Shown here piece by piece: positions 90-45,855 of a stretch of DNA of 64,000 nucleotides. This DNA comes from Clytia hemisphaerica (taxonomy: Eukaryota; Cnidaria; Hydrozoa; Leptothecata; Clytiidae). The stretch is taken from contig CACVBU010000865.1 in the NCBI GenBank assembly GCA_902728285.1, positions 2,678,842 through 2,742,841 of the forward strand, read 5' to 3'. Both the position numbers and the translations under genes were made by a program. A model generated the notes under the pieces. The model searched no databases, was not told the DNA's origin, and saw only the letters and a program-made list of their open reading frames with translations. Position 1 is the first letter of the stretch. Every line of letters begins with the position of its first letter.

Positions 90-330
90 GGTTTGATTGT
101 TGTTTGTCTATTGTAAGATTGTTTTTTTGTGGGTTGTTACTTTTTGGTTCTTTGTTTTTATTTTGTTATTGTTGTTGGTTTTAAGGTTTGTCGCTGTTTT
201 GTTTTGTTGGTTTTCAACTTTTGTCCTTGTTGCGTTAAGTTGGTGAAAATGATTTCTCGCTCTGTTTGAATGTTTTTGATTTTTAGTTTGACACGCGTTT
301 TCTGAATTTTAATTAGCTTTTTCAGATAAA
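90..330 (+). repeat. Dispersed repeat, inverted copy of 30,860-31,145
   Basis: This T/G-rich stretch reads almost base for base as the reverse complement of about 30,900-31,145. There the sequence lies downstream of the Penelope-like reverse transcriptase fragment that is coded on the minus strand. It is therefore probably 3'-UTR or tail sequence of the same element family, here in plus orientation. No coding piece of the element accompanies it inside the window; the rest would lie left of position 1 or is absent. Confidence 0.6.
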
Positions 331-503
331 AAATTGGGCAAAAGTTTTGGTCGGGTGATAAAATATCGGGGAAAAAATTCGTCGGGGGAAAATTTCGTCA
401 CCTCAAAATTTTCGTCACTTTCCCCTAAAATTTTTTTCCCCGATAAGGTATTAAATGCAATTTATTATTTAAAACCCAGCTGACTTGGGTGGCTATTTTA
501 ATA

Positions 504-4855: not shown

Positions 4856-5825
4856 ATAAGGGACAGTTTGGTGTTGTGAATAAAGGGACCTACGAAAAAA
4901 AGACTGTCGCTGTTAAAGTTATGGAATCCCATGTAACACAGGAACAATATTTGAAGGAGGCGAAGCTAAATAAGCTAGCTTCAGAGTCATGTGAGAACAT
5001 AGCTTCATTTTTGGGCATCTCATATACATCGACGTACGCTATTATGCAAGAGTTCTGTTCCTTCAAGTTTTCAATAATATGCTCTCTCCAAGAAGAAGTA
5101 TCTTCGCTTCAAAAACTCGTCAAAACAATCGACCATAACTTTGATTTCAAAGAATTTGAACATTTTGCTTTCAAAATTGTGAAAGATGTCGCAAATGGAC
5201 TTTCACATCTACACAGTCTTGGTATAGCACATCGAGATTTGAAGCCAGCCAATATTCTAGTGTCCAACCAGCATTTCCATGAATCTAAGTTTGGTGAACC
5301 AGAATGGTATTCAAACCCTTTAGTCTGTAAATTAACTGATTTTGGAGAAAGTCGTTCAACAGTTGTCCATACCAGAGCAATGCTTATGAATGAAACGGTC
5401 CGAAAATCGACCGTCAATGATTTTAATCGTGGAACATTTTTCTACAACGCACCTGAAATTACAGTACCAAGCAAAAGACCACAAGCCTTCACACAAGCGA
5501 TGCTTGAAAAAGCTGACGTTTGGTCGTTTGGTATGGTTATTTTTTCAGTCTTGAATGCGGATTATGGTGGTATTCCATATCAAGAAAACATCAAAAACGC
5601 CTTAAAAGACAGACCAGAAATGATCGTTAAAGAACAAGTAATCGAATTAATGAGAAATGAGATTCCGCCAACATGGAGCAAGAAGTATGCACACCTACAC
5701 AATGCTCAATGGAGAGATCTGGTGAAAATTCAAAAAAGTTGCGCTGTTCATTTTGGAGAACGCCCAACTATGGTGGAAGTTTTGCATAGTCTCGGAAAAC
5801 AGGTAACAGGTCGAATTGTAGCTCA
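4856..5825 (+). CDS. Protein kinase domain exon of a composite gene
   Basis: The exon opens at an acceptor (ttctcttag|at) and reads DKGQFGVVNKG, a partial glycine loop. VAVKVM follows, with the ATP-binding Lys. Then come HRDLKPAN (catalytic loop, 5,230-5,253), DFG (5,338-5,346), APE (5,449-5,457) and DVWSFGM, so all the catalytic residues expected of an active Ser/Thr-type kinase are present. The first Gly of the loop and any earlier part must come from an upstream exon not identified. The ATG at 4,269 is a weak candidate whose phase would fit. The frame reaches TAA at 5,827-5,829, but a donor (GCTCA|GTAAGC) lies just before it. That donor is phase 2 and matches the acceptor at 6,750, so I read the kinase as the N-terminal part of a longer protein. 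A stand-alone kinase ending in the TAA is the alternative. Confidence 0.85.
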
Positions 5826-6749
5826 GTAAGCGCCCAGCGACATTGTATACTTGCGTTTGATAATTTAGTACTATAAATTTTTAGAAAATTACAATCCACA
5901 AAATTTTCGAAAATTAACCTTTTATACTTTTATGCTAGAAACATTTTAGTGCGTAGTATGTAGTTTCTTGATTTCTCCGAAATAGAGGTTTTACTCAATG
6001 AAGTATAAGCCCATAGAAGCGAATCTTTAACCTTTCTCAGGCAAGAAAAAGTGAAGCCTTAGAATATACGCCGTACTTTTGATGACGGATTGAATTTAGT
6101 GGTTTCTTTCTTTTCGAGTGGCATTTTTTTAAATCTAGCTGAAAATTATACTTTTAATATCCGGAATTTGTATAAAAACCACACGAGCCGCTCAAAGCTG
6201 CGCGTAACTTTGGCGGGTAAGATTTAGGGGCTTCAAATCCTACTAAGGAGATTAGCTTCCAGCCCTTCAGAATTATATTTCATTGGTTTTATTTGCATGT
6301 TATTTAAAAAACTTATTAATTATAATTTCAGGAGCCAGAAAGTGATTGTTGGGCTTGTTTCAAGAATTCATCTTTAAATGAAATTGTTAGGTGAGATGCC
6401 AATGAGATAATTAATGTGGTATAAATTTAAAAATTGATATTCAAGGTTTGGGATGAAAATCAAATTGGAGGTAAATAAGTAACGGATAAATGGATCTAGA
6501 AAGCGCTGAAAGTGTTAAACTTGCGATAGAAAACGGCTTTTTCTATGAGCTATTTTGACCGTGAAACAAAAGAGAGGTTTCAATCGAAAATTCTATTTCA
6601 TTAACAGTTATTTAAGTCATCTAGGATGAATATTCGAATCCACAGCGTGAACAATTTCACAATCGGTATGAAAATTAATTATAATATGGACACTGTCAAC
6701 TAGTTGTGAAAAAGTTAACTGAAAAAGTTCATTCAAATTTCTATTTTAG

Positions 6750-7609
6750 AAAAATTGAGATCATCAGTCTTCCGATAAGTCAAAACTCGGCGATGGAACA
6801 CTATAATGAAGAGCAGGCACTTGCGTTCGAAAATACTGGGCTTCTCAGTGACCAACCACTAGAAAACGATGGTAGTAATGGTTGTACTTATCTTTGCCTG
6901 AAGATTGTTCAAAATTTGCTAAAAGAAGAATACACAGGAGAAAAATTGGAAGGTAATCGAAGTATATTTGTTAGCGCTATCAAGGTCGTGTTTTTTGAGG
7001 AATTGTAATCCGGGTTAATTAAAAAAAAAAACATTCAGATTGGATAACTTTTTTATGAATTATTTAGAAAGAAAGATATGTAATGAAAAAAAGTTAAAGG
7101 TCAAAAGGTTAGGTCAAGTTAAAAGGCCTAAGGTAACTGAAGTATTCTATTTATTCAATTTAGAAATGGTAGCAAAGGTTATATGGACCTATCCAGCTAT
7201 TCTAAACAATTTTCGAAGCTTTTCCAGCATGTCTCCGATGGATGCATACAAAGTTATGGGTAGCTAATGATAAGAACTTCATTAAGATGAATTTCGAATA
7301 TGTGGTTGGAAGTTATCGCGCTCTTACAGATTCGGGAAAGGCAGATCTACATGAAAAACTTAACTCACTAAAAGAAGATTTTGTATCTGTTTTTGTTTGC
7401 CTTCCTTACACAGTTGTGATATTTCGCTCAAAAGGAAAGCTACATCTTATTGACACACACTCAATTCCTGAAAAGTCGGGGGGAACTGGTACCGGGGTCA
7501 TTGTATCGTCGGAGACAGCACAAGATCTTTGTAATTGGTTACATCTCCGTTTGGAAAACACAGAAATGGAAGTCAATACTCCACAATCATTGATTCTTCT
7601 AAAAGAAAA
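6750..7609 (+). CDS. Cysteine-peptidase-like domain (two or three exons)
   Basis: Exon one (6,750-6,952) follows a strong acceptor (ctattttag) and carries DGSNGCTYLCLKI, a typical nucleophile-Cys helix start (Cys codon 6,883-6,885). Its phase-1 donor matches the acceptor at 7,163, opening EMVAKVIWTYPA through SPMDAYKVM. The frame then shifts by one base in a GGG run near 7,258-7,260. The new frame continues MNFEYVVGSYRAL, later LPYTVVIF, and LHLIDTHSIPE (His codon 7,458-7,460), then GTGTGVIV. The Cys, then Asp-x-His order resembles papain-fold deubiquitinase or SUMO-protease-like enzymes, but this is motif-level inference. The exon ends at 7,609 (GAAAA|GTAAGG, phase 2), matching the next acceptor. 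The frame break could be an assembly error, a real mutation or an unrecognised junction. Confidence 0.6.
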
Positions 7610-7787
7610 GTAAGGCTTCAGCTCGGTAAACTTTTTCAATTTACACCATAGAGACCACAATGAACAGACATTTTTTTTATTTTTGAAAAAGACTAAGAAG
7701 ACTGGAAAAACAAAACCCTGTAAATTCTTCCCTGGCTACCCCATACTTTAAAATATTTAACCATCTTTAATACACACTTCACTTTAG

Positions 7788-10700
7788 CACCGATGACATC
7801 CATTTCGATCTCAATATGGTGGATGACGATCAACCTGTTATCAAAATTAGAGAACCAACGGTAAGTTTTAAAATTATTATTTTAATAGAATACTGGGTTT
7901 ACTAATGCAGTGAAAAGATAATTAGTAACTTTCGTTTTCAAACAAAGTTAAGATTTAGCGATCCCCCACCTCATCTGCTCGACTCTTAGAACATCGACAG
8001 AGTTCGTAAACCTTTGTACACCTCTTTCGTGGCATGGTTTAGTCGCAGGAGAAGGTATATTATCTATCAAGTGAATCGGTCATGATGCGGGAGTTGGGTC
8101 AGACCTTGACACCTTAAACGTTAGTTAACATTGTACCCGTCACAGTACGCAACATTTTTGCCCTTAGGATTTATAGTACGTATTTTATTAATTTAGGGAA
8201 ATTTGTCTAAAGCAGCAGAGCCAGCTTCTTCGAAATCAAACGAAGCACATAAAACAAGAAACCCGTCTAGAGTGGAAAAGAACTTTGTAAGAATTCAATT
8301 TAATTTAATTGCAGCGATCGCAGTACTATGAAAAATAACCAAAGTCCTATAAAATAAAATTGAAACGTAAACTAATTTCATTTACAGCTTTGCGAGTAAG
8401 AGACTGATCAATTTTCAAACCTCGAATTTACTTAATTACTTACTTTAGGTAAATCTGACTGAAGATCCGGATTCCTCGAATTCAAGCAAAGCAGAGAAGA
8501 CTAAAAATTCTTCTAGTGATAGATCACCCTTGGTAAGATTGTCATTGGATTTGAAATGTAACCGATTCACAATTTGTTTTCGTGAACTCAATAAAACATT
8601 TAAAATTGAATCATACAAAAGCTTTTTTAGAACAATCTTTACGAAACACGATTTTCTAACGGAGTTTGTTTAATATCCAGGAGATAAAGGTTAAACCCAT
8701 TCAAGCCCATTCAATAAAGTGAAAATGAAGAGTTGATAAAACAATAGTTTACATTCAAATGCTTTTTGTTGGTTTTAGGCAAATACGTTTAAAGAATCTG
8801 AGTCAACTTCTTCAAAACCGAACGAGACAGAAAAACAAGGAGAATTCTCAGGAAAAAAGCCGTCAAGAAAAAAAAGACCCTCTGTAAGATAATAACATTG
8901 CCAACAAATAAATGACCAGGATTTTCAATTTAATCTCTCATATTGAAACCTCCAATAAATGATCCTGTGTAAAATAATTTAACCAAGACATTACTGAGCA
9001 TCACCATTTGACCTATTTTTTAAATATAGTCTGTGAGGAGACCCTGTAAGAATGTTATCGCGCATGTCTCGATTTAACTATCTAAAAATTAACGAACAGA
9101 GAGCATGCATCCATCTTTCTANAGATAACACTGTACCCCGCAAGGTACTACAAACCGCTCAAAACATTTACACTTAAGTTTTACAGTACGTGTTTTTTTA
9201 TTAAATTTAGAAAAATCTATCCAAAACAGCTGGACCAAGCTCTTCCAAATCAAAGAAACCAAGACACCCGTCTAGTGATAGGACAAACTTTGTAAGATTT
9301 CAATTAAATTTAATTGCAGTACCAAACAACAAAGTCTTTGCTGAACTAAACCTGTACAATCAGCGCAATAAAATAAAGTATAATCAATGTAGTCAAATTA
9401 AATCTTATTTACGATTTTTAACAACTTTGCCAGCAAGAGACTGATCAATTTTCAAATCTCGAATTTACTTAATTACTTATTTTAGGTAAATCTGACTGAA
9501 GATCCAATTTCCTCGAATTCAAGCAAAGCAGAGAAGACTAAAAATTCGTCTAGTGATAGAACACCATTGGTAAGAATGTCATTGGATTTGAAATGTAACC
9601 GATTCACCATTTGTTTTCGTGAATTTAATGAAACATTTAAAATCGAATTACTTGGCTAGTTTACATGTTTTCAATGCGAAAACTGCTAAAGAATGAATGG
9701 TTGTGTAAAATGTAGTTTACATTCACATATATTTTGTCAAATTTAGGAAAATCTGACGGAAGAGCCTGAGCAAAGTCCCTCGAAATCAAACGAGACACAG
9801 AAAACAAGAAAGCCGTCTAGTGGGAACAGAATCTTTGTAAGATTTTTTTGATTACAGTTGAACTCGTGTAATTCGAATTCTCAAGGGACCGAGAATTTTG
9901 TTCGAATTACGTACATGAGTTTCGATCTAGATGAGTTTTTGTATTTTTGACCTAATTCGATGAAAAAAGTCTTTCACAGGTTTACTTTTGAACAACTTTT
10001 TGTATTTTCGAGTTAGAATAATGAAACACTAAATTCATAAAGTGACTTCTTTATGTTTTATTTTTCCCATCTTGTCTTGATAAGAAATGGAAGGCAGTGG
10101 ACGAGCGACGAGCTCCAATCGAATGTAAAAAAGAAAACATAGATTGGCAAACAATAATTCGTACGTCAAAAACGTTCGATTGACAAAATGTCGAGTTTGT
10201 CAGCTTCAAAAAATCAAAAGATTTAAAAATTCGAATTACATGATTAAAATTTCTTGATGGGATCGGAAAATCTGTTCGATTTACATGATTTTTCGATTTG
10301 CATCATTTTTCGAGTTACATGGGTTCGAATCATAGGAGTTTTCTTGTAAGGTTTTTAAGGTAAATTCTGAGGAGACCACAGAATCTGTTCGAATTAAGTG
10401 AGTTTTCGAATTATAGGAGTTCGAATTACACGAGTTCAACTGTATATAGTATACTTTCTTTTCTCTATTTAATGCGACGTCCTATTAACAATTAATGTGG
10501 ATAAACTATTTTGAAAAGTTCTGGTAAATTTATTTCCTCCGACTCTATTATTATCATAGTACACACCATAAAATTAAATTAAATCTTATTTACGATTTTT
10601 AACAACTTTGCCAACAAGAGACTGATCAATTTTCAAACCTCGAATTTACTTAATTACTTAGGTAAATCTGACTGAAGATCCGGATTCCTCGAATTCAAGA

Positions 10701-12700
10701 AAAGCAGAGAAGACTAAAAATTCGTCTAGTGGTAGATCACCCTTGGTAAGATTTTCATTGGATTTGAAATGTAGCCAATACACCTTATCGGAAATTCCAC
10801 CTCCTTGCGTTGTTGCTACGCAACACTTTTTGGGAGGTAAACAAAGCGCGATATTGCGGTTTACAGGCAAAAAGCCTCACAAAACACTCAAAATATTGAT
10901 GCCAAAAGAGCCTCCAAATCAACTGAAGAACCACCGAAGTTGTTGTTGTTGTTCCTCTTTCTTATAGCTTCTGCTAGCATCTTGAAAGCTTTGTTTTGTT
11001 TGTTTTTTTCAAATTCAGTGTATTTTTAGGAACATATAAACAAGCCAGATATAAGCAAATGAGTTCTTGTTTTACGCGGGAACTTTTAGCGCTACTCGCG
11101 CTGCTATTGGTCCCATTTATGTTTACCTCCTAATTTCAACGGATCCATTTTAGCGCGTTTGTTTTTGTGGAATTTCCCATAAGGTGTATTTACAATTTGT
11201 TTTCGTGAACTCAATAAAACATTTAAAATTGAATCATGCAAAGGCTTTTTTAGAACATACACGCGTTTTTATAAGAAAACTGCTATAAGAATATCAGAGT
11301 GAGATTTCGGAGATGAAAAATATTGGGCCTATTGTTTAGAACAATACAAAAATAAGAATAATGCTCACCCTCAGCCAAAGTACACAAAAACGTGTATATT
11401 CTTATTCTTAATAAACTGAATCTGCTTTATTTCATCCAAGATTAGTTCCTAGAACACAAATGATATAGGTTTGCCCGAACATATATTTTTTTTTATTTAG
11501 GGAAATCTTTCAAAAGCATCTGAACCAACTCCTGCGACATCAAACAAAACACAGAAAACAAACAACCCGTCGCTGAGGAGAAAAAATTCCTTGGTAAGAT
11601 TTTGATCGGATCGGGTTATTTATGAATAGCCTAACCAGAAGTAAAAATACTAAGCTGAATAGAAACGTGCAGCTTTTTTTCTTGGGGTAAAAATATTTCG
11701 AATATCAACAGCTCTATTTACCATTCTGTGACATAGCATAATCAATTGTCGGGAATAATATCTACCATATCTACTATTTTGAGACATAGACCAGCTTCAC
11801 CTTTTATCAAATATTGCCATATATCTATATTACCAGCTAAGTAATTGTGCATAGGATTTATGATATGCCGTATTGTTCCGAATCTAGACGTAAGATGAAC
11901 AACCCTTCCTTTCATATCCCTTTTAGGATAATCTGGCTGAAGAGCACGATTCAAATTCTTCAAAACCGAAGGCAAAAAAAACTAAAATCTCGTTTAGTGA
12001 AAATTTGTCAACCGTAAGTCACTTTTGAGTTGATAATAAAGCTCTGAAAATTTGAAATTTCGTCAACTTTGCAAAATTCAAATGTTTTATCGCAATTGAT
12101 TCTTTTGGTTTCATTATGGTTTTTAAAATGCTTAAATTGTTAAGGAAACCATTTTACATTTAGATCTTGCTCATTTTTAATAAAGTTTTTTTTTAAAGTT
12201 TTTCTGAGAAGTATTCATAATACTTACCTTACTTTTCCAGTAAACAGAAATCTTTTTCGAGAAAAACTTTCGTGAAAGTTTCTTCTCTTTACGTATTTAA
12301 CGCTGCGAAGTACTTATTTTAGAATGACAACGGTGGAAGGCAAAGTTTGTCAAGCAACTCATCGACAGCTGAAAAACAGAGTCACTGTGATACAACGTCC
12401 AGGTAAATTCAGTTACCAAAGTATGTACCAGGTTTATAGCCTGAGACTTCAGCTCTTTTTCTTATTTACGACCTAAAGTAGCAGAGGTTGAGGCCTGAGA
12501 TCGCCTGAATAAATTTAGCTAATCAAAGAAAAGCTTTTGATAGGCTTAACCTTATTGGGCTGTAAAAATAAAAAAACAAACCATCATCAGATTGTACTGT
12601 TCGTAGTTTTTAAATGAAACTAGCAATTGTGTTTTTGAAAATCGGAAACTTTTCCCTTCCAGCTCACAAGATTCATCGGATGAGGTCTCAACCAAAACAA
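7788..12700 (+). CDS. Array of short Ser/Lys/Asn-rich linker exons of the composite gene
   Basis: Thirteen-odd small exons follow one another with consistent phases. They are 7,788-7,860; 8,197-8,286; 8,449-8,532; 8,779-8,883; 9,211-9,291; 9,486-9,569; 9,747-9,836; 10,662-10,745; 11,501-11,593; 11,927-12,013; 12,323-12,402 and 12,663-12,700. Those from 8,197 to 12,013 are symmetric (phase 0-0), 27-35 codons each, and obviously related: GNLSKAAEPASSKSN, VNLTEDPDSSNSSKAEK, KNLSKTAGPSSSKSK, DNLAEEHDSNSSKPK. Nearly all end in GTAAGA or GTAAGT donors. Flanking introns are also similar (for example 'agactgatcaattttcaaa' before three of the acceptors), so exon plus intron was duplicated. The product is a hydrophilic, probably disordered, phosphorylatable linker between the peptidase-like and transposase domains. 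No catalytic motif is seen. Confidence 0.75.
9855..10442. mobile_element. Intronic MITE, CAGTTGAACTCG ends, TA target
   Basis: Terminal inverted repeats begin CAGTTGAACTCGTGTAATTC and are matched at the right end (gaattacacgagttcaactg), flanked by TA on both sides. End sequence and TA duplication resemble pogo/Tigger-type Tc1/mariner elements. The 588-bp interior carries many TTCGAATTA repeats and codes nothing. It lies inside the intron after the linker exon ending at 9,836. Confidence 0.85.
10781..11186. mobile_element. Intronic MITE, CACCTTAT..GGAAATTCCAC ends, TA target
   Basis: The left end CACCTTATCGGAAATTCCAC is mirrored at the right end (gtggaatttcccataaggtg), with TA on each side. 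The paralogous introns after exons 8,449-8,532 and 9,486-9,569 run straight through the equivalent point (gtaaccgattcac then caatttgttttcgtg), so they serve as natural empty sites and date the insertion after the exon duplication. Short frames inside are not genes. Confidence 0.85.
11262..11430. repeat. Intronic foldback fragment related to 1,465-3,146
   Basis: It begins acacgcgtttttataagaa and ends with 'cgtgtatattcttattctt', an imperfect inverted pair of the same TTCTTATAA..CGTGT family seen near the window start. It lies in the same intron as the preceding MITE and is non-coding. Confidence 0.45.
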
Positions 12701-12881
12701 GTAAGTCTTTGGTTTTTTCTTTGTCACGGACTTCGTATGTTCAAAGAATTCTTTTAATGATGATACCTCCCAATCTCATTTCATTTCTTTAAGAATACAC
12801 GAAAGAAAAAAGACAACTTTTGCGAACAACTCGAAAATCCTACATAGCGCACGCATAATTTCATTTAAAAGACTTAGTTAT

Positions 12882-13353
12882 ACACCCCTGTATCAGTGAC
12901 CCGGTTGGATCAGTCCCGGTGGATAACCCGGTGAAAAAGGATTCCAAAAGTGGCCTAACTTTAAAACCCAGTAGGATAATGAGTGAACTCAGTCAAAATT
13001 TCCTCGCTGAACAGAATTGGAAAATTTATTGTCATATTAATTACATTTTGTTGGTCAACTCGGTCAAAAATTCCAGTTTTTTTTTTTGGATGAGCAACCT
13101 AGTAAAAAGTAAAAGTCTCCCTTAATTTTTTTATCCTCTTATTCTCCACATAATCCATTTCCAAAACTATCATTTTTTCCCTGTGGCACTAACCATATTT
13201 TTTCAATTTGAATATCTTAGTGTCCTTGTCCCGTTGAGAATCGATGTGAAAATTCTCAACCCATGTATAATACCTCAAAATCAGACTCGGTGAAATTTTC
13301 GTAGTCACCCCGCTGGGTTTTTAAAACGCCACTGGGTCACTGAGACTGGGGTT
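12882..13353. mobile_element. Intronic inverted-repeat element, CACCCCTGTATCAGTGACCC ends
   Basis: The left edge acacccctgtatcagtgaccc and the right edge (gggtcactgagactggggttc) are imperfect inverted repeats of about 27 bp. The interior is full of 'actcggt' and 'acccggtg' motifs and has no credible frame. It sits in the 12,701-13,396 intron. Related copies are at 4,290-4,732 and from 36,023. Confidence 0.65.
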
Positions 13354-13396
13354 CTTTATCCGTAATACCTTCATCCTTTTTTCCCTTTTTTATCAG

Positions 13397-14708
13397 GCTG
13401 TGAATCAATACGGACGGATGACTATCCAAAGTATCCTAGATCAAAGTTTAATTTGGAAGACCTGGTCAAAATATGTATCGGAGAAGAAGTCGAGAAAAAT
13501 CTAGTCTGTAATAGAGTCCCACGCGATGTCTTTTTTGACGCAACTTACATCATCGATCTAAATAAAGTCAATCATAAAGATATTACTTGCGACGGACTAA
13601 TTTATGGGCCGTGTTCATCTCCATCAACAAACATTAATGTAACGTTCGCAGAAAATGGAAAAATTCAAAAATGTGGTATTGCTAAGAAAGAAAACGACCA
13701 CACGCATGTTCTTCGTCGGCAGTACAGTGTTTGTTCAGCAAAACTTTTGGCTGGAGCAAAAATGGAAAGGAAAATTTATCGATTCGAAAGGCCAGGTTAT
13801 GGATTGGCCAGATACGCTATTATAACATATAACTGTGTAATTCCAGAAGGTTTACCCAAACCAACCTTTAACGTTTTCGGGAGATGCCACGGAAACAGAA
13901 AGAGACGAAAACATGAAGTCTACGTGCGTACATTCCCTACTACGCTTGAAGCAATGAAAAAGAAAGTCTGCTTCAAGACACCGAAAAACACCGTCCAAGA
14001 GTTACGAGAAGAAAATGGGGGTGTATTAAATTTCACCAATCCAGCGAAACTTCCCAGAAACCGAACGCAAGTTTACAATGCATCCAAAGGTCTTGACAAG
14101 CCAAAACATAGAAATACTGGAAGGGTAAAAAACACCGATTTTTCGAAACTTTTGATGATGTTGTCTGGTGGAAGGTTTGTGAAGAAAGTTCACTATGACA
14201 CAAATCCTGAAGAACATGTGAATCCAAAAGTCTTTGCTGGCACAGATTCTACATTAGGATACATAAATACATTTTGCCGAACATCCAACCCAAAAAGCCA
14301 GCTGGGGATCGATATGACGTATAAGTGTGGGCCGTTTTATGTGACACCTTGTACTCTGAAACATCCTGCAGTGGTGCTTGAAGACGACCCAACAAAACAT
14401 CCAACGGTTGTCGCAGCTCTCGCTATAACTTACAGAAAAGAGACAGAAGATTACAGCTTTTTGGCGGAAGGGATCAGAACGACAACCCCAAATAAACTGA
14501 TTTATGGTACCGACGGCGAAGTAGCTATCGAGAAAGCTTTTGAATCAGCATTTCCAATAACTGAAACAGCGGATGCTTCCATCCATTTAAGATGCTTCAA
14601 CCATATCGACAATGATATCGGACGTTTTTTGAAATCGAAGCTACCAAATAACGAAATAAGAACAATAGTCAACGATATTCTAGGATACGAAGATGCACAT
14701 GGTACAAG
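13397..14708 (+). CDS. MULE-type transposase domain exon of the composite gene
   Basis: The acceptor tttttatcag opens a phase-1 exon reading CESIRTDDYPKYPRSKFNLEDL and runs 437 codons without a stop to a phase-2 donor (ACAAG|GTATGC). MULE/Mutator DDE landmarks are present: the first acidic residue in GIDMTYKCGPFYVTP (Asp at 14,311), and the second in YGTDGEVAIEKAF (Asp at 14,512), followed by HLRCFNHIDND, the usual C/H motif. The third acidic residue is in the next exon. The N-terminal half (NRVPRDVFFDATYIID, CGIAKKENDHTHVLRR) would carry DNA binding in this family. With all three acidic residues kept, it may be catalytically competent. The intron structure and upstream fused domains argue for a spliced host-like gene or a complex MULE. 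Confidence 0.85.
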
Positions 14709-15176
14709 GTATGCTTTAAAACTTTTTTTATGAAGAAATCTACATTTGAAATGGGTGATGTAAAAAGGATCACTTAACATAACTGTTTAGGAACAGCTGG
14801 CTGTTCAAGGCGTCCGCAATCATGGAACGATCTACTCTGTCTTGATCTTATATTCAAAAGGTTTCGCTGGGCATGCCATTCGTTAAAACCAGTATTTAAG
14901 AACGGTGATTATAGCTAATTTTTTGAACAGATGATTAAATTTGGGTGATTTCAAACTCACCTAAACAAGCTACATGCTGAATGGACCTACCTGAAGTCTA
15001 ATACAATAAGAAATAGAAAAAATCGCAACAACATTGATGGACAGCTTCTTGGTACTAGTAGCATGGTAGAATAGGGCCACTAAAACACGAGACAACGAGA
15101 AACATGAGCAAAATAAACGATTCATTTGCTCCTTTAAAATTTAATCCTATCAAAGTAACTTTTATTTACATTACAG

Positions 15177-16557
15177 ATTTGAAGGACTGGTTGATGCACA
15201 AGAAGAAGAGTTTGAGCAAAAATATGATTTGATGAAGAAAAGATGGCCAGACTACTTTGTGAATTGGGTTGAAACCGCAACTGGTAGGTCTCGCCCCTTA
15301 AAGGAGACGATGAAAAAGTGCATGCTTCGAAATGTTCGTGAGTCTGCTGGACTTGGTAACCCGCCAAACAAGTACAGTAACAACCCTGTTGAAGCCATAA
15401 ATTTGGTCGTCCAAGAAGCAATTTCAAAGAATGCAGTAGATGTGATTTCATTTTTGGACAAAGTTGAGAGGCAGGTGTTCAAAGCTCAAGAAGATGACTT
15501 GATACAGGCTATATACAATATGGGCATTTATCGTCTTGCTTGTCCCGAAAAATCCGTTCGAATTTCTGAATGGAATAAAATGTCCAATGCCCAGCAGGAT
15601 GCAACAATTAAGAAGCTCCTTTCTGGCGCAGCACCCAATAGATCCCATAAATTCAAAGGTGCAATACTTCTAACATTGAATGAAGCCTGTCAGTTGGCTG
15701 ATCTCCCAATTTCTACTCTTGAAAAACCTTGGACGGATGCTGAATTTATCATCGCTCAAGGAAGAGTAGAAAAACTGGTTTCTGGTGTTACATCTATTTC
15801 GGGCTACGATAGCAACGCCATTGTGGGCATCAACGGGAAATGTGACTGTTCAGAATTCGGCTTTAAAGGTCTGTGCTGTCACGTCATTGCATTCCATGCT
15901 TATAATGATACCTTGAATAGATTCTTGGAGGAGTTTAAAGTCGACCCTGCGAAGGTGGTTAATGTTCCGAAGCGTGGTGGAAAGAAACCGCATGAAAAAA
16001 AGAAACGGCATGGAAAAAACAACATAAAATCGCACCCAATCACCCACCTGAAAACAGATTTTGATCCTCAAGTCGATGAGGAAAAAGAAATGGATTTCAA
16101 GGAGTTTTGGCACAATAACGAGCCATTCACCATTCACCGGTTGGGAAATGAAGAATGTAAGCGTGCCGTCAAATGCGAGCAATGCAGGATGCATTTCCCA
16201 ACAGGGAAAAAGGTGAAGATTGGCTCCGACATTGTTGTTAAACACCGGGAATACTACTATCGTCCTAATCCTGATGGTGGTCCACCAATCCTAACGTACG
16301 TCCTTGCAAGAAAGTTTTATTGTGCAAAAAGAAAGTGCATCCTTCAGCGATTCCCCTACTTCTGGAAGGGGATGATGTCAATCGACCCTGTTGACGAGAA
16401 AGCTTTATTCCCGGAGCATTTCAAGATCCTTTACAGAGAATTTCACTGCCAAGGTAACTGCTTAAAAGTGTGTTTGGAAGAGAACGGGGCGAAATCTAAA
16501 TTGAGAAAAATTCCTCATGATTCATCTTACAATTTTCCGACCTACTTGCCTGATTAG
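15177..16557 (+). CDS. MULE transposase C-terminal part with SWIM zinc finger
   Basis: A strong acceptor (ttacattacag) joins in phase 2 to the exon ending at 14,708, giving RFEGLVDAQEEEF. YSNNPVEAINLVVQE contains the likely third catalytic acid (Glu at 15,391), as in the MULE 'NN..E..N' motif. The SWIM finger (CxC..CxH) is CDCSEFGFKGLCCH at 15,841-15,882. A Lys-rich stretch (GGKKPHEKKKRHGK) could be a nuclear signal. A second Cys-rich part, from EECKRAVKCEQC to FYCAKRKCI, looks zinc-binding. The frame ends at TAG 16,555-16,557 (FPTYLPD). A donor at 16,453 (CCAAG|GTAACT) would instead splice to 17,349. Together with the previous exon this makes a near full-length MULE transposase. Confidence 0.9.
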
Positions 16558-17348
16558 CGTTTTAGAAAAACCTTCGTACTCTATATAGAAAAATCATTGT
16601 TAACCTCACTGTAATTATTCTATCTTACTGAATTGACAAATGTTCAACACGTCCTCGTCAGAATGTATTGCTTACTAATCAAAGCTGGACCACATTTATA
16701 ATAAAATGAAGTACTGCTAAAATTTATGTTAGATGTAATTTTGAGGGGGTAAATTTTGCTTAAGTCCCGACTTTGGTTGTAGATTGCAAAATTCAGTCCC
16801 AAAGATAGCGGAATGTCCAAAGACCACTATATGTTAGTTGAGATTAAAGATGATTTAAAAACCTATTCCAGCAATCAGCATGCGCAGTTTAGATGTAAAA
16901 AGGCATGAAAATCCTAAAAATACAATGCAGTATAAATATAGTCATCTGCGAAATTTACTTCTTGTGAAATACACGTTTTTTGATGTAAGCATTGCACATA
17001 AGCATATCAAGGCTCATTATGGCAGCAATTTAAGCCGATGATAAGCATTAACTCGAGCCTACGAAAAATATATTTTCCTGATTTTTCCTGTCTTTGGCTC
17101 GGGTTTTACGGATTTACGGAATTTCCCTGTAGTTTTGCTTGAGTTCAAGCATCCTTTTTAGCATTTTTCAGAACATCTCTTAGCCTGTCTTCAAATGTTT
17201 GTATGCTTATAAAAAATCATGTAGGGTATTAAAAATTCGAGAATCAGTTAATTTGAGAAATATATATTGCCTGTGAAAATATTTTGGTGGAATTCGGATT
17301 TGTTTAGTTTTTTTAAACGAAACTTTTTTTTTTTTCTTTTATTTGTAG

Positions 17349-17425
17349 GGGGCGTTACAAATGTCGACAAAGCATCGGACAAAGTGCAGGATGGGGCGTC
17401 AGATGAATCGTCAATGTCCGAATAG
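17349..17425 (+). CDS. Alternative last exon (acidic C-terminus) of the composite gene
   Basis: A pyrimidine-rich acceptor (ttttatttgtag) opens a frame GVTNVDKASDKVQDGASDES ending SMSE and TAG. It needs two bases to complete a phase-1 codon, exactly what the donor at 16,453 supplies. The spliced form would replace the last 34 residues of the 16,557 form with this short acidic, Ser-rich tail. A polyadenylation signal lies about 145 bp downstream. Confidence 0.55.
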
Positions 17426-17570
17426 AATATTATATCATCACCTTCGAGAACATTAATATTTAAAAGGAATTATGTTTGAATTTAAATCTTCCCGCCATAG
17501 TCATTATAAAAAACCCTGGTCTAGGTCAATGTATTGTTTTAGTTTTTTGTCAAATTTTCCTTTGTTATGA

Positions 17571-17576
17571 ATAAAA
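17571..17576 (+). promoter_or_regulatory. Polyadenylation signal AATAAA
   Basis: AATAAA occurs in 'ttatgaataaaatgc' shortly after the alternative last exon and is the first good signal downstream of both candidate stop codons on this strand. It fits the end of the composite gene transcript. Confidence 0.5.
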
Positions 17577-17588
17577 TGCAAGTTGCGA

Positions 17589-17673
17589 TTTGCATACTTT
17601 TTGATCACGTTACAAAATACTACTTTTGGGATTGGTCTTATTTCTAATCACATGATCAAAAAGTATGCAAAAC
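17589..17673. repeat. Hairpin: TTGCATACTTTTTGATCA inverted pair
   Basis: The sequence ttgcatactttttgatca is followed about 40 bases later by its reverse complement (tgatcaaaaagtatgcaa). A long stable stem is therefore possible in DNA or RNA just past the polyadenylation signal. It may be a tiny foldback element. Confidence 0.65.
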
Positions 17674-19589
17674 AAGTCGATTTACGAACGCAAGCTCTAA
17701 CTGTTAACAAAAGAATTAAACAAAAGCTTTCTAGACCGGGGATTTTTATATTGACTATGTTCCCGCTACGGCATATCTAAACCATGTTTCAAACGTTACG
17801 GTTCCGTATTTTTTTTCCGAACTAAAATGGTTTCGTATTGTTCCGAATCGAAATGATTCCGAAACACTGTGTGAATATCAAAATTTGAAACTTCAAAAAA
17901 AGAAGACATTCCAAAGCATAACATAACAGATCGAAACGTTTTTGCTCCAAAACTGCTCCGGAACAAAACTGCTCCGTTCTCTTGCTCCGAAACGTTCCAA
18001 AACCATTATAAACACTCTCGGTCAGTAACGGAAGCAATACCGGAACGATACGAATAATCGTAACATCTGAATATGATCTTAGACGTTACTTTACCCTCTT
18101 AATGCATCCGACCATAGTTGGAAAGACATTGGCATGTGTTTTGTTACTATTCTCCTTGAAAACTAACCGGCGCCGCTAAGGCCTGGCTTAAACATACATT
18201 AGCTTTTCCATTGAAGTCAGTATTTTTTTATTGGGGTTTCCAATGGTGTTAACCTTTACATTCCAGAGTCTTCTTTCTAATTGAGGTAGCTAGAAATAAC
18301 TCTCAATACTCGATCGAATTTCAAGAAGCCAATTGAGTTCCACACTGAAAATATTAGCATAGGATCCAGCCGTGTCAATTGAATAACAAACCTGGTTTAC
18401 GTTGCTTAGTTTGCTTGTCGGGCTGCTTTGAATTTCGATGATGACATTTTTTGCCCATCGCTGTTCATCACGTGATCAAAATGTAGCCAATAAAATTGGA
18501 AAAGTCATTGCATTTGAGTTGACAATGTCACCAAGCTAAGTGAATTATTTTCTTCACTGCCATGGCTTCAGAGAAAAGATTGGCTCAACCTAGTAGTCCT
18601 CATGCCTAATAACTATTTTTGATTGATGAGGAGATTAGCCCTGGAATCGTCTGGATTTTATCGGGTGTACGAGAAGATTTTCCAGTTACTTTGTAAGATA
18701 TCTGTAAATATACACCGTTTCCTAACCAGGTAGATTTTCAATTGACATTTGTTTGGGGGTATATCATGAAAGTTCTATCAGTTAAAGAATCTGCTACCAT
18801 TTTATAATTCTAAAATTCTCTTGTTTAATAGAAGAATCTTGAAGTTGACAATTTCTTGAAAAGTTACAGTTTCTGATCGTCAACCCTGCATATCATTTAT
18901 AACATAATATTTTGTTTATTAAGTTGTTCAGACCAGAGAAATAATGTTTACGCTGTACGTAATATATTTCTTAAAAAAATTGATTGTCAATGTTTTCAAA
19001 GACATGCATGATTGACATATACCGTAATCGCATATTTCTGTGTCACTCCCTAGTTCCTTCAGAAGGTAGTAAGAGTATAAAGGAACAGTTATCCCATCCA
19101 TTAAGATATTTTTAAAGCACTCCGTATCACAAACGATCTAATACCCTACAATATCATACCTTACAGAAATTATTTTATAATTTCTTTCCTATTGAGACCG
19201 ATGTAACAGCTTATATAAAGTGAAAGAATTTTTTAGTATGCTAATTCAGATTTTGACCTTAAAATGGATAAAATTTCGCATGGATTAATTTTCGAACCTA
19301 AAATTGGCTAACCCCTAGGGAAATGAGAAAACGAAAAAAAGTACGATTAGCAAAATTTTATATTCTCGATCCGCAAAACAAAATCCACGCGAAAATTAAT
19401 CCACCTTTAATAAGTTATACTTCAATCCCGAAAAGGAAACACCCATCTATCGACAGTTTCGATGCAAAACATTGATCTGTAGATAACTATTTAGGCCATG
19501 AAATTACTATTAAAAAAAAATTCAAGCTTTTTTTTTCTCAAAATGAAGCGTGTCTGTGTTGGGTCCCTTAGTAAGAGACTTGTATCACG
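17674..19589. other. No gene seen
   Basis: This stretch has no supported coding region. At 17,790-18,060 there are recurring 'gttccgaa' and 'cggaac' words. At about 19,282-19,404 a weak foldback is present (ggattaattttcg against cgaaaattaatcc). The rest is ordinary AT-rich sequence on both strands. Confidence 0.5.
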
Positions 19590-22500
19590 TCTCCGATACC
19601 GTCTTCGTATTGGTCTAAAATCTGGCTTGTGATTTCTATCACAAAGGGACTTCCCTGTGCAAACTTTCATGTTGTGAGATTTATTGGTTGTGAAAATACG
19701 GAGACTGGTATTTTTGCACCACGTCGAATTACGTTTTTCTTACGTAACTCCCGTCAACAAGGTTCCACAGATCTGATTTTTGGCATGAAGCTGCGTCTTT
19801 TAGATGATAACACACGTGCAATACCTTGTGCAAATTTTCTTGTTGTTAAACATATTCGTTCCATAGATACGCAGACTTGTATTTTTGCACTACGTCACAT
19901 TACGTTTTTCTTACGTATCTTCTTCCCACGTCGGGTGGGGGATTTAATTTTTTTAGAGAGGACTTTTATATATACCTTACGTGATCACACCAAATTTGGG
20001 CTAGTTGGTCCAATTTCTCCTCGAATTAGAGCAGTTCTAAGTTTTGGTGGTGAACGGTTATAGGATGATTACGTGATTTTACGTTTTTCTTATGTAACTC
20101 CCGTCAACAAAGTACTACAGAGCTGATTTTTGGCATGAAGCAGAGTCATACGAATACTAAGATACGTGCCAAATTTCGTTTTAAGATATACAACGGTTCG
20201 AGAGTTATTTGAATATTCCGTAGATTAGTAATTTGCGGAATATTATTCCGCAGATTAGTAATTTGCGGAATTTCAACGTAACTCCCGATGACGTCTTTGT
20301 ATTGATCTGAAATTTGGCTTGTGAGTTTTTATCACAAAGGGGCTACCCTGTGCAAATTTTCATGTTGTGAGACTTATTGGTTGCGGAAATACGGAGACTG
20401 GTATTTTTGCACTACGTCGAATTACGTTTTTCTCACGTAACTCCCGTCAACAAGGTACCACAGATCTGATTTTTGGCGTGAAGCAGCGTTATTTAGATAC
20501 TAACACACGTGCCAAATTTTGCTGCATGATATATAACGGTTCGAAAGTTATTTGAGAATTCCGTAGATTAGTAAATTGCGGAATTTTATTCCGCAGATTA
20601 GTAATTTGCGGAATTTCAACGTAACTCTCGATGACGTCATTGTATTGGTCTGAAATTTTTCATGTGAGCTTTTGTCACAAAGGGGCTACCTTGTGCCAAT
20701 TTCCTTGTTGTGAAACATATTCGTTCGATAGATACGCAGACTTGTATTTTTGCACTACGTCACATTACGTTTTTCTTACGTATCTTCTTCCCACGTCGGT
20801 TAGGGGATTTAATTTTTTTAGAGAGGACTTTTATATACACCATACGTGTTCACACCCAGTTTGGGCTTGTTGGTCCAATTTCTCCTTGAATTAGAGCAGT
20901 TCTAGGTTTTGGTGGTGAACGGTTATAGGATGATTACGTGATTTTACGTTTTTCTTATGTAACTCCCGTCAACAAAGTACTACAGAGCTGATTTTTGGCA
21001 TGAAGCAGAGTCATACGAATAATAAGATACGTGCCAAATTTCGTTTTAAGATATACAACGGTTCGAGAGTTATTTGAATATTCCGTAGATTAGTAATTTG
21101 CGGAATTTCAACGTAACTCCCGATGACATCTTTGTATTGATCTGAAATTTGGCTTGTGAGTTTTTATCACAAAGGGGCTACCCTGTGCAAATTTTCATGT
21201 TGTGAGAACTTATTGGTTGCGGAAATACGGAGACTGGTATTTTTGCACTACGTCGAATTACGTTTTTCTCACGTAACTCCCGTCAACAAGATACCACAGA
21301 TCTGATTTTTGGCGTGAAGCAGCGTTATTTAGATACTAACACACGTGCCAAATTTTGCTGCATGATATATAACGGTTCGAAAGTTATTTGAGAATTCCGT
21401 AGATTAGTAATATGCGGAATATTATTCCGCAGATTAGTAATTTGCGGAATTTCAACGTAACTCTCGATGACGTCATTGTATTGGTCTGAAATTTTTCATG
21501 TGAGCTTTTGTCACAAAGGGGCTACCTTGTGCAAATTTTCTTGTTGTGAAACATATTCGTTCCATAGATACGCAGACTTGTATTTTTGCACTACGTCACA
21601 TTACGTTTTTCTTACGTATCTTCTTCCCACGTCGGTTAGGGGATTTAATTTTTTTAGAGAGGACTTTTATATATACCTTACGTGATCACACCAAATTTGG
21701 GCTAGTTGGTCCAATTTCTCCTCGAATTAGAGCAGTTCTAAGTTTTGGTGGTGAACGGTTATAGGATGATTACGTGATTTTACGTTTTTCTTATGTAACT
21801 CCCGTCAACAAAGTACTACAGAGCTGATTTTTGGCATGAAGCAGAGTCATACGAATACTAAGATACGTGCCAAATTTCGTTTTAAGATATACAACGGTTC
21901 GAGAGTTATTTGAATATTCCGTAGATTAGTAATTTGCGGAATATTATTCCGCAGATTAGTAATTTGCGGAATTTCAACGTAACTCCCGATGACGTCTTTG
22001 TATTGATCTGAAATTTGGCTTGTGAGTTTTTATCACAAAGGGGCTACCCTGTGCAAATTTTCATGTTGTGAGACTTATTGGTTGCGGAAATACGGAGACT
22101 GGTATTTTTGCACTACGTCGAATTACGTTTTTCTCACGTAACTCCCGTCAACAAGGTACCACAGATCTGATTTTTGGCGTGAAGCAGCGTTATTTAGATA
22201 CTAACACACGTGCCAAATTTTGCTGCATGATATATAACGGTTCGAAAGTTATTTGAGAATTCCGTAGATTAGTAAATTGCGGAATTTTATTCCGCAGATT
22301 AGTAATTTGCGGAATTTCAACGTAACTCTCGATGACGTCATTGTATTGGTCTGAAATTTTTCATGTGAGCTTTTGTCACAAAGGGGCTACCTTGTGCAAA
22401 TTTTCTTGTTGTGAAACATATTCGTTCCATAGATACGCAGACTTGTATTTTTGCACTACGTCACATTACGTTTTTCTTACGTATCTTCTTCCCACGTCGG

Positions 22501-23671
22501 TTAGGGGATTTAATTTTTTTAGAGAGGACTTTTATATACACCATACGTGTTCACACCAAATTTGGGCTAGTTGGTCCAATTTCTCCTCGAATTAGAGCAG
22601 TTCTAAGTTTTGGTGGTGAACGGTTATACGATGATTACGTGATTTTACGTTTTTCTTATGTAACTCCCGTCAACAAAGTACTACAGAGCTGATTTTTGGC
22701 ATGAAGCAGAGTCATACGAATACTAAGATACGTGCCAAATTTCGTTTTAAGATATACAACGGTTCGAGAGTTATTTGAATATTCCGTAGATTAGTAATTT
22801 GCGGAATATTATTCCGCAGATTAGTAATTTGCGGAATTTCAACGTAACTCCCGATGACGTCTTTGTATTGATCTGAAATTTGGCTTGTGAGTTTTTATCA
22901 CAAAGGGGCTACCCTGTGCAAATTTTCATGTTGTGAGACTTATTGGTTGCGGAAATACGGAGACTGGTATTTTTGCACTACGTCGAATTACGTTTTTCTC
23001 ACGTAACTCCCGTCAACAAGATACCACAGATCTGATTTTTGGCGTGAAGCAGCGTTATTTAGATACTAACACACGTGCCAAATTTTGCTGCATGATATAT
23101 AACGGTTCGAAAGTTATTTGAGAATTCCGTAGATTAGTAAATTGCGGAATTTTATTCCGCAGATTAGTAATTTGCGGAATTTCAACGTAACTCTCGATGA
23201 CGTCATTGTATTGGTCTGAAATTTTTCATGTGAGCTTTTGTCACAAAGGGGCTACCTTGTGCAAATCTTCTTGTTGTGAAACATATTCGTTCCATAGATA
23301 CGCAGACTTGTATTTTTGCACTACGTCACATTACGTTTTTCTTACGTATCTTCTTCCCACGTCGGTTAGGGGATTTAATTTTTTTAGAGAGGACTTTTAT
23401 ATACACCATACGTGTTCACACCCAGTTTGGGCTTGTTGGTCCAATTTCTCCTTGAATTAGAGCAGTTCTAGGTTTTGGTGGTGAACGGTTATAGGATGAT
23501 TACGTGATTTTACGTTTTTCTTATGTAACTCCCGTCAACAAAGTACTACAGAGCTGATTTTTGGCATGAAGCAGAGTCATACGAATACTAAGATACGTGC
23601 CAAATTTTGTTTTAAGATATACAACGGTTCGAAAGTTATTTTAGAATTCCGTAGATTAGTAATTTGCGGAA
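19590..23671. repeat. Satellite: about 4.7 tandem units of ~865 bp, each a diverged dimer
   Basis: Identical landmarks recur at 20,631, 21,467, 22,332 and 23,197, so steps are 836, 865 and 865 bp. Within a unit, half A (tgacgtcattgtattggtc onward) and half B (tgacgtctttgtattgatc onward) are diverged copies of one ancestral half unit, making a higher-order repeat. Each half ends in the motif ccgtagattagtaatttgcg, which recurs with variants in short inverted pairs (ttccgtaga / gcggaa). The 836-bp unit lacks one of two such motifs. Unit-to-unit identity is very high. Open frames inside repeat with the satellite and are not genes. Confidence 0.9.
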
Positions 23672-23828
23672 TCTTTCTAATCAGTACGGCACTAAATGTT
23701 TTATTGGCCGTAATTACGGTTTACGTAGGTTTCATATTCCCAAATTTGGCATGTAGCAGCCTTGATCCATTATAAAGACATGTGTGAAGTTTTAACAATA
23801 TACCTTTATTGCTTCAAGAGATATCAAC

Positions 23829-23915
23829 GTATTCCGTAGATTAGTAATTTGCGGAATAAAATTCCGTAAATTAAAAGGCGGAATTTTATTCCGTAAATTA
23901 CTATAAGCCGATTTA
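23829..23915. repeat. Outlying fragments of the satellite end motif
   Basis: Three further copies of the short attccgtaga..taatttgcggaat type motif lie about 150 bp beyond the last full unit. The edge of the array is therefore diffuse, or the motif itself is a separate small unit. No coding capacity. Confidence 0.5.
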
Positions 23916-25885
23916 GAGGTATAGCTACTATGTACCATTTTACATGGCCTCAACGATTAACCGCTAGTACTTTTGAAACAAACGACCATTTGGTATTGTG
24001 ATATTATTTGCTTCCAAAGCTTATCAATATAACACTGCCATGCTTCAGTTTTGATTATTTTGAAAAAATCTTTTGACAAAAGTTTACAAAAGCTAGATCC
24101 TTGTTAAAATTTGTTAGTGTTATTTTGTCTCTTAATGTTATTTAATATTTATTTTTTTGCGTAAAGTTACGACTTTAGAAATTTTTAACTTGTTTATATT
24201 GCTTATACAAAAGTAATATATTTTACATTTTACAGTGTTAATTTTATTTGTTTTATCTTTCGTTATAAAGTTGAAATTTTCCAATGATTATATATAATGT
24301 TCTGCGAGAGCTGACAAATAATGCCATTTTTAATCAGGGATTAAGGTTTGTTTTTAAAAAATACTGACAGAGACTACAAAGGCTAGATGCTTGTTAAAAA
24401 CGTTTCTTGTGATTTTATCTCGTAAGCTTTTTTGTTTATATTTATTTAACTTTCGTTTATACATAGGAAAGGTAAAACATTTTAGGCTAATTTTAGTTAT
24501 TTATCTTAAAAGTGTTTGCATTGAATTTTACGTCTACCCAGCTGGATTAGATATTACTTAAAAATACGCCATTCAAAGATTTTACAAAATCACTCTGGTT
24601 AAATAATAATTGTATTTGTAAAATTATTTTTGAAGAGCCCTATCCTCAACTTTTTATGTTAACAAGCAGCTGTTGGTATTGCCTTTTCGCAAAGGTCCTT
24701 TTAACATTTTAATTTTAACTTTAGTTTTTCTTTATTTCATATTAAAATATCATTAAATTTTTTTAGTGTTGAAAAAAACAAGTTTTTTGACATCGAAATG
24801 ATGACCTTCTTTTGTCTCATCTGTTGATTATATTCAACTATGTTCGACCATGATTCGTTTAATTTAGGGTAGTGTCCTGGGTGGAACATTTTGGGTACAA
24901 CCAGAATATTTGCTACGTCAAACTTAGTTTTAAAATTTATACGAACTCGAGGCCATCTTATCAAGTGTTATGCCTTTTTATTAGCACGAAGAAAATTTGG
25001 TTGAAACTCTAAATATTTCGCAAAATTTCATCTCTTCTTTAGCCTAAAATTATGTTCCCTTACAAGTAAGGCGAGTGGGTATGAATTGAAATAGAGTTTT
25101 CGCTTAACTAAATTTCGCCCAGTTTTTGCCCAAATTCTTTCATTTTAGTAGGGGGTCAGTATAGATTTGCAATTAAAGTTGTATTTTGTGGATTCAATTT
25201 ACACCCAAAAACGAAAATCAGTTCCCTAAGTTAACTTTGGTGAGATCAAATTTCGTGAATTTTTGTCATTTTTGGAAAATTAACACGTGAGAGATCGTGA
25301 ATTTGTTTTTTGTCGTTTGGCCCGGGACAGTTAATCCGATAAGTAATACTGTGGTCCGTAATTTACAAAACAAAATTTCCCGGCTGGTCTGCGTATTATT
25401 ACGGGGTACTCCATTAGGTACACCATTGGAGTACTCCATGGATGGGCTCCATGTTTTACAACGACCCTTCGGAAACCCCCATAAATAGCGGAAATGCTAT
25501 AATTATTAGGGAGATAATTTGATGTTGTGTTCTCAAGACTCTCACGCTTACGATGATATTTTATCAAACATCAATTCGTTGTCAATTTTCTGATCAAGAT
25601 TATGATAATGAATTCACTATTCGGAATCTCTTTCGTACTCTTACGATTTTATCACCCTTATATTTCTTTTGATGAAAGAAAAGAATCGGAATTTGTTTTC
25701 AATGTAAACAAATATGGCGGAATCCGAACCAAGCAAGAATATTTTACCTAGTGCTCTTTTGTCTAAAACAGAAAAAAATCAAAAACGAAAATCTCACGGT
25801 TTTTGCCTGAATCTCAAGGTTTTCTGAGGAAAAAAATAAAAGTCTCAAGGTTTTGGCCTTTCACAGGTTGGCAGGTCTGCGAAAA
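23916..25885. other. AT-rich, no gene seen
   Basis: Mostly poly(T)-rich low-complexity sequence with weak internal similarity, for example 'caaaggctagatgcttgttaaaa' at about 24,377 echoing 'caaaagctagatccttgttaaaa' at about 24,086. No frame shows protein-like composition or splice sites that I could support. Confidence 0.5.
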
Positions 25886-28970: not shown

Positions 28971-29343
28971 TGTACAAAACTTCACACATAAACTTAGATT
29001 TTGTGCAGTTCAGATTGAGATAAATTTGATATTTTCTGTCTTTTGTCTCAAATCCACTACTAGATGATTATCAATAACGACTTCTGAATGCTTCTATTCA
29101 GAATCCTTAGTGTCATTATACTCATGACGAGTGTATTGAAATTTCTTATTAATAGCGTTTGCTGTTTTATTACAGTTTTTTCATTAATTTATTTTTGTGT
29201 CGCTACATTTTTTGATTTCATTTTTTGCACCAAGAGCATTGCGAGGAATATCATGTCAGGTTGTTTGATGGCTGTTGAACATGTTGTTTGTCACGAGGGT
29301 AAGTCAGCACAGAGCATGCATCGGATTTTTCGATACTTAAAGT

Positions 29344-45840: not shown

Positions 45841-45855
45841 AAGTGAAACATAAGA

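What the first reader, a model, noticed from the sequence alone, without database searches (positions are those of the whole stretch)
4856..17425. Kinase, cysteine-peptidase-like, MULE transposase and SWIM domains in one phase-consistent spliced frame
Seen: kinase donor at 5,825 (phase 2) matches acceptor 6,750; 6,952 matches 7,164 (phase 1); 7,609 matches 7,788 (phase 2); all linker exons are phase 0-0; then 12,402/12,663 (2), 12,700/13,397 (1) and 14,708/15,177 (2). Kinase and DDE residues are all kept. Known: MULEs carrying Ulp1-like proteases exist in plants. Inferred: this may be an animal MULE or domesticated gene that also gained a kinase, so that phosphorylation and deconjugation might act on the same complex as the transposase.
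Basis: partly seen in the sequence, partly recalled or inferred. Interest (0 to 1): 0.87.

Follow-up and report, generated by a model that had tools for sequence, protein, structure and literature searches.

The report
Jellyfish transposon with kinase and deubiquitinase
This stretch of jellyfish DNA lies inside a very large jumping gene (a Mutator-type transposon) that carries, besides its cutting enzyme, a protein kinase and what looks like a herpesvirus-type ubiquitin-removing enzyme; a distant relative elsewhere in the same genome has the same parts inside a complete transposon.

Summary
The window is from the hydrozoan Clytia hemisphaerica. The frame as stated is not: the kinase donor is 5,802, exon 6,332-6,390 was missed, and exon 7,164-7,609 cannot keep the claimed phase. 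A transcript-named protein (P0040) joins the end of the kinase, the peptidase and linker exons 1-5. No protein found crosses from linker to MULE. The peptidase best fits the VTD (viral tegument-like deubiquitinase) family, on weak sequence scores.

It is not a domesticated gene. The locus lies in a ~27.6-kb element with inverted ends (97.2% over 1,816 nt), and deletion copies exist. Paralogue C504, about 31% identical in the kinase, is a complete 18,983-bp element: kinase, VTD, MULE and SWIM inside 312-bp inverted repeats with a perfect 9-bp target duplication. MULE follows kinase-VTD on the same strand at 5 of 6 loci taken as non-allelic.

Most likely a MULE lineage encoding its own kinase and deubiquitinase. 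DUB-bearing MULEs are known; I saw none with a kinase or a VTD in ten limited paper searches.

The parts
4856..5802 (+). protein kinase exon (HRD at about 5,230, DFG at about 5,338)
   Evidence: Pkinase 98.7 bits; exon ends from P0041/P0040
   Evidence: present in P0040 and P0041; AG/GT sites and phases fit
6750..6952 (+). peptidase exon with the putative catalytic Cys (about 6,883)
   Evidence: Cys segment matches only 8adb in the PDB, E 0.39
7164..7609 (+). peptidase exon with the Asp-x-His motif (about 7,452-7,460); frame broken in the window letters only
7788..7860 (+). exon following the peptidase
   Evidence: in P0040
8197..12013 (+). nine tandem phase-0 Ser/Lys-rich linker exons (8197-8286, 8449-8532, 8779-8883, 9211-9291, 9486-9569, 9747-9836, 10662-10745, 11501-11593, 11927-12013)
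   Evidence: the first five are in P0040
12323..12402 (+). exon before MULE (phase 0 in, 2 out)
   Evidence: no transcript evidence seen
12663..12700 (+). exon before MULE (phase 2 in, 1 out)
   Evidence: no transcript evidence seen
13397..14708 (+). MULE transposase exon, first and second catalytic Asp
15177..16453 (+). MULE exon with catalytic Glu and SWIM finger
   Evidence: SWIM 14.9 bits, cut-off 19.6
17349..17425 (+). last coding exon, stop TAG
   Evidence: P0001
19593..23909 (.). right-terminal repeat block of the element; its outer 1.8 kb (22,096-23,909/10) is the inverted copy of the left end, which lies about 1.9-3.7 kb left of the window (C594:2,675,102 on)

Best explanation
The locus is the coding core of a very large (~27.6 kb) Mutator-like (MULE) DNA transposon of Clytia hemisphaerica. 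On its + strand lie a protein kinase, a VTD-like (herpes-tegument-like) deubiquitinase, a repeated Ser/Lys-rich linker and a DDE MULE transposase with a SWIM-type finger. Shown: domain order, catalytic motifs, inverted termini, deletion copies, and a diverged complete element with TIRs and a 9-bp target duplication that carries the same parts. Inferred: the long mRNA makes one protein, and reading past the 7,609 donor gives a shorter kinase-VTD form. Inferred: the DUB protects the transposase complex, or a host factor it needs, from ubiquitin-dependent removal. Inferred: the kinase phosphorylates that complex (the Ser-rich linker is an obvious candidate) and so times or licenses transposition.
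Against: No target duplication for the window copy; only 6 of 8 bases agree at C612; the right end of C672 was not found within the 6 kb fetched. No protein found joins linker to MULE, and none of the MULE hits came from the transcript-named set, so no transcript evidence for MULE was seen. P0041 stops before the linker. No linker-like exon array was found in C504. At C817 no MULE was recognised in the 8.7 kb fetched, nor kinase-VTD in 8.0 kb upstream of the C340 MULE and 7.8 kb upstream of the C628 MULE. VTD scores are sub-threshold; 5 of 6 paralogue domains gave no Herpes_teg_N match. Foldseek gave no match at E <= 0.001 for the MULE model.
Confidence: 0.75

Rival explanations
1. The transposon carries two separate genes, as maize MuDR does (recalled): a kinase-VTD gene, with the linker exons at its 3' end, and a MULE-SWIM gene. 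No fusion protein is made.
For: No protein found spans linker and MULE. P0041 ends just past the 7,609 donor. The NCBI MULE protein P0001 lacks the other parts.
Against: Phases are continuous from the linker to MULE. Linker exons 6-9 continue the array towards MULE and keep donors. The contig length reported for P0001 (752,681) equals that of C612, where the sequence is cut at 13,808, so its short N-terminus may only reflect that deletion copy.
Confidence: 0.3
2. A domesticated host gene, made by capture of a MULE by a kinase-VTD gene.
For: Intact-looking reading frames and transcript-named models. At C340 and C628 MULE parts were seen without recognised kinase-VTD in the 8 kb upstream.
Against: Inverted termini outside both parts, deletion copies with the same termini, and a complete diverged element with TIRs and TSD. 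Window and C504 kinases are only about 31% identical yet sit in the same arrangement.
Confidence: 0.05
3. Chance neighbours or an assembly artefact in a repeat-rich region.
For: The region is repeat-rich, the window copy has no target duplication, and contig C944 shows a head-to-head arrangement that may be an artefact.
Against: Same order and strand on five contigs taken as non-allelic, and joined protein models.
Confidence: 0.02

Closest known systems
MuDR-6_HM of Hydra, MULE group 14 of Dupeyron et al. 2019 (PMC6446971; passages and part 1 of section 6 seen)
   Same: Cnidarian MULE with a deubiquitinase-type domain (OTU) in its ORF, per Table 1.
   Different: OTU, not VTD; the passages show no kinase ('kinase' occurs 0 times in the main text). 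Its sequence was not compared here.
Helitron-encoded VTDs (DrT1, DrT2), Erven et al. 2022 (PMC9741609; outline, passages, sections 6 and 8 seen)
   Same: VTD-type deubiquitinase inside a transposon; Cys and Asp-x-His; the authors also mention cnidarian VTDs fused to transposon-associated domains.
   Different: Helitrons use a Rep/helicase, not a DDE transposase; 'kinase', 'MULE' and 'Mutator' occur 0 times in the main text.
Plant MULEs with Ulp1-like proteases (Kaonashi; recalled, listed)
   Same: MULE plus a deconjugating cysteine peptidase.
   Different: Different peptidase family, plants, no kinase as far as recalled.
ISCth4 transposase (PDB 6xgx)
   Different: Bacterial; the listed chain is 355 residues and holds none of the accessory parts.

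Membership tests
MULE (Mutator-like) transposon | DDE catalytic residues in an RNase H-like core | tested here: met
   [not shown]
MULE (Mutator-like) transposon | Pfam MULE (PF10551) match above cut-off | tested here: not met
   Window ORFs: no match. Relatives P0035 25.0, P0031 23.4, P0042 17.4 bits, cut-off 27.6; C120 ORF 18.3. The profile is a detection aid, not a defining trait.
MULE (Mutator-like) transposon | Long terminal inverted repeats | tested here: met
   Window element 1,816 nt at 97.2%; C504 312 bp at 89.7%
MULE (Mutator-like) transposon | 8-11 bp (typically 9 bp) target-site duplication | tested here: inconclusive
   C504: perfect 9 bp GTAGGAAAG. Window copy: none of 8-11 bp. 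C612: 6 of 8.
SWIM zinc finger | C-x-C...C-x-H above the Pfam cut-off | tested here: inconclusive
   Motif present; window 14.9 bits, cut-off 19.6; relative P0012 22.9 bits
VTD deubiquitinase (herpes-tegument-like) | Catalytic Cys followed by an Asp-x-His motif | tested here: met
   Cys in 6 of 6 Clytia domains; D-T-H in the 4 that cover it. Cys-His spacing 121 in P0041 against 131 in DrT1-VTD2. In register with 8adb at both motifs.
VTD deubiquitinase (herpes-tegument-like) | Significant sequence or profile match | tested here: inconclusive
   Herpes_teg_N 11.8 bits against 25, in 1 of 6 members. 8adb: E 0.39 for the Cys segment, E 0.52 with a profile, ranked below an unrelated chain 3bqa at E 0.1.
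VTD deubiquitinase (herpes-tegument-like) | VTD fold | tested here: inconclusive
   Single-sequence model of P0041 had mean pLDDT 36.2 and was not used
VTD deubiquitinase (herpes-tegument-like) | Ubiquitin-cleaving activity | not testable with these tools
   needs a biochemical assay
Eukaryotic protein kinase | Pkinase match with catalytic Lys, HRD and DFG | tested here: met
   98.7 bits against 31.7; VAVK, HRDLKPAN and DFG located

The most novel reading that the evidence does not exclude
A lineage of giant animal MULEs has bundled a protein kinase, a herpes-tegument-like deubiquitinase and the transposase in one long polyprotein, and uses on-board phosphorylation and deubiquitination to control its own transposase and to escape host degradation. 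The module has travelled as a unit long enough for two subfamilies only about 27-33% identical in the kinase-VTD part to keep it.
Probability: 0.5. Interest if true: 0.88.

Novelty: new variant of a known kind. Interest (0 to 1): 0.8.

Why it matters
Host kinases and ubiquitin are known to regulate transposases (general knowledge). An element that brings its own kinase and deubiquitinase would make transposon-host conflict testable in one protein. It also links herpesvirus-type DUBs to DDE transposons: the published VTD account centres on Helitrons and does not name MULEs (PMC9741609; passages and two sections seen). C504, with catalytic motifs, TIRs and target duplication all present, is a concrete object for experiments.

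Tried and rejected
Domesticated gene and chance neighbours: see rivals. A first TIR search inside the window found no pair flanking the gene above simulated scores except 100-333/30,912-31,146 (235 nt, 96%). Its flanks do not match by eye and it was set aside as a dispersed repeat; the true left end lies outside the window. A further TIR search around MULE alone (7,861-13,396 against 16,560-24,000) found none. The single-sequence model of P0041 was unusable. Fold searches were run only on the MULE relative P0042; families not listed there are not excluded. No relatives of the MULE alignment or of P0040 in viral contigs, nor of the MULE alignment in prokaryote contigs. Rfam was not searched.

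Papers: ten searches. Of the listed papers none was titled or abstracted as a kinase-bearing MULE, but several searches matched far more papers than were listed (for example 10 of 3,635, 15 of 2,492). Four papers were opened: PMC6446971 (passages, outline, part 1 of section 6), PMC9741609 (outline, passages, sections 6 and 8), PMC10027918 and PMC10318531 (passages). Marquez and Pritham 2010 is not held.

Limits of counts: the own-genome search was answered only for P0041 and P0001, so copy numbers are lower bounds. Of the 65 rows, flanking DNA was fetched for a minority. That C944 and C594 are allelic, and that the six loci are non-allelic, is inferred from identity (98-99% against 72.6% or less). 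The C417 MULE rests on its row; its DNA was not fetched.
Full report
Identity of the window. A 702-aa NCBI protein of Clytia hemisphaerica (P0001) is identical to part of the joined MULE exons. The own-genome search places the window at contig C594:2,678,842-2,742,841 of a 417-Mb assembly of 951 contigs.

The gene model. The kinase ORF is clear. P0040 is a EukProt entry named TCONS_00027039, transcript-derived by its name; P0041 is an NCBI model named as Clytia. Both leave the kinase exon at 5,802, use an exon 6,332-6,390 and continue into the peptidase. P0040 holds only the end of the kinase in frame and goes on through linker exons 1-5; P0041 has the kinase and stops just past the 7,609 donor. 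The window agrees with P0041 at 434 of 434 residues up to the middle of exon 7,164-7,609. It then differs by one base in length, which breaks the frame in the window only. Downstream it differs from P0040 at 1 of 286 residues. The + arm of contig C944 also has the shorter form. Since the exon has 446 nt, 'phase 1 in, phase 2 out' cannot hold for the window.

The linker. Nine exons of 81-105 nt, all phase 0, lie between peptidase and MULE. The same scan found 0.01 on average in 200 simulations and 0 on the + strand of 17,501-64,000. In most of the 36 pairs the exons are more alike than their flanks, but not in all: exons 2, 5 and 7 are recent copies with partly similar flanks, and pairs such as 3-4 and 3-6 show no excess. 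Linker exons 6-9 are not in P0040. No protein found joins linker to MULE: the 8 hits are 824-905 aa long and cover MULE and SWIM. One long protein is likely but unproven.

The peptidase. Pfam gives a sub-threshold Herpes_teg_N match over the Asp-x-His half (11.8 bits), and only in 1 of 6 Clytia domains. The 44-residue Cys segment hits one PDB sequence at E <= 10, deubiquitinase 8adb/8adc, E 0.39. Erven et al. (PMC9741609) name these Wc-VTD1 and describe VTDs by their Asp-x-His motif. A profile of the six domains aligns over 149 positions with 8adb, E 0.52 for the sequence, with Cys on Cys and D-x-H on D-x-H; an unrelated chain, 3bqa, ranks above it at E 0.1. I put VTD at about 0.8.

Is it mobile? 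One search gave 65 rows for P0001. Contig C612 holds window 13,808-17,978 at 99.3%, joined at 13,808 to the repeat block of window 19.6-23.9 kb in inverted orientation. Copies on C839, C672 and C792 (92-96%) lie beside the same inverted block. The 9 kb left of the window contain the matching left end: 1,816 nt, 97.2%, inverted, ending at the same base as the right end. That terminus also ends the C612 derivative on both sides (728,380 and 747,067) and C672 on the left. The window element is thus about 27.6 kb and encloses the whole gene. No target duplication was found for it; C612 shows 6 of 8 matching bases. Contig C944 carries near-identical sequence in two arms that meet head-to-head at window coordinate 3,967; I read it as allelic and possibly misassembled. 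The contig lengths reported with P0041 (264,040) and P0001 (752,681) equal those of C944 and C612. So the NCBI models probably come from those contigs, and P0001 may start late because C612 is the deletion copy.

The decisive relative. Contig C504 has kinase, VTD, MULE and SWIM in the same order, at about 31% identity for the kinase-side piece, 27% for the second VTD exon and 34-50% for MULE pieces. It is enclosed by inverted tandem arrays and, outside these, by 312-bp TIRs at 89.7% with a perfect 9-bp duplication GTAGGAAAG. The catalytic motifs looked for are all present. No linker-like exon array was found there. A second subfamily (C120, C308, C417, C817) has kinase-VTD again. MULE lies downstream on the same strand at C120, C308 and C417. 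At C817 none was recognised in the fetched 8.7 kb, only an ORF with a Cys/His-rich stretch that Pfam does not name. C120 and C308 pair with each other in both parts (64% and 75%), and window and C504 stand apart from them in both, which fits descent as a set.

How it most likely works. Shown: the parts and their transposon frame. Inferred: the DUB counters ubiquitin-dependent loss of the transposase, as Erven et al. suggest for Helitron VTDs. Inferred: the kinase acts on the complex or on host factors, and reading past the 7,609 donor yields a kinase-VTD form without transposase. No activity was tested.

Novelty. A MULE with an OTU (Table 1 of PMC6446971) and Helitrons with VTDs are in print. 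In ten paper searches I saw no kinase-bearing and no VTD-bearing MULE. That is not proof of absence: listings were capped, and Erven et al. mention cnidarian VTDs fused to unnamed transposon-associated domains. I file it as a new variant of a known kind.

Noticed in passing
window 45847-52839 (+): A 2,330-aa open frame that by eye looks like a BEL/Pao-type retrotransposon polyprotein; no family search was run.
   Followed up: no
window 29341-29829 (+) and 31687-32379 (-): Open frames that by eye resemble non-LTR/Penelope-type retroelement pieces; not searched.
   Followed up: no
window 100-333 and 30912-31146: A 235-nt inverted pair at 96% without matching flanks, probably a dispersed repeat.
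   Followed up: partly
window 9853-10444 and 10777-11190: Two short inverted-repeat pairs (28 and 24 nt, 96%) inside linker introns, possibly small MITE-like insertions.
   Followed up: no
window 9122: A single N where both C944 arms hold about 790-800 extra bases; the piece of the + arm has no match in the window and no linker exon by the same scan. Single Ns also at 34667 and 39004.
   Followed up: partly
L036 (C628:1775664-1776032, - strand): An ORF upstream of another MULE that by eye recalls an OTU peptidase; Pfam does not support it.
   Followed up: partly
L034 (C817:75001-75933, - strand): A Cys/His-rich ORF downstream of a kinase-VTD paralogue, by eye FLYWCH-like; no Pfam match.
   Followed up: partly
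[not shown]
   Followed up: no
L024-L026 (C944:140000-170000): Two near-identical copies of the locus head-to-head at window coordinate 3967, real duplication or misassembly.
   Followed up: partly
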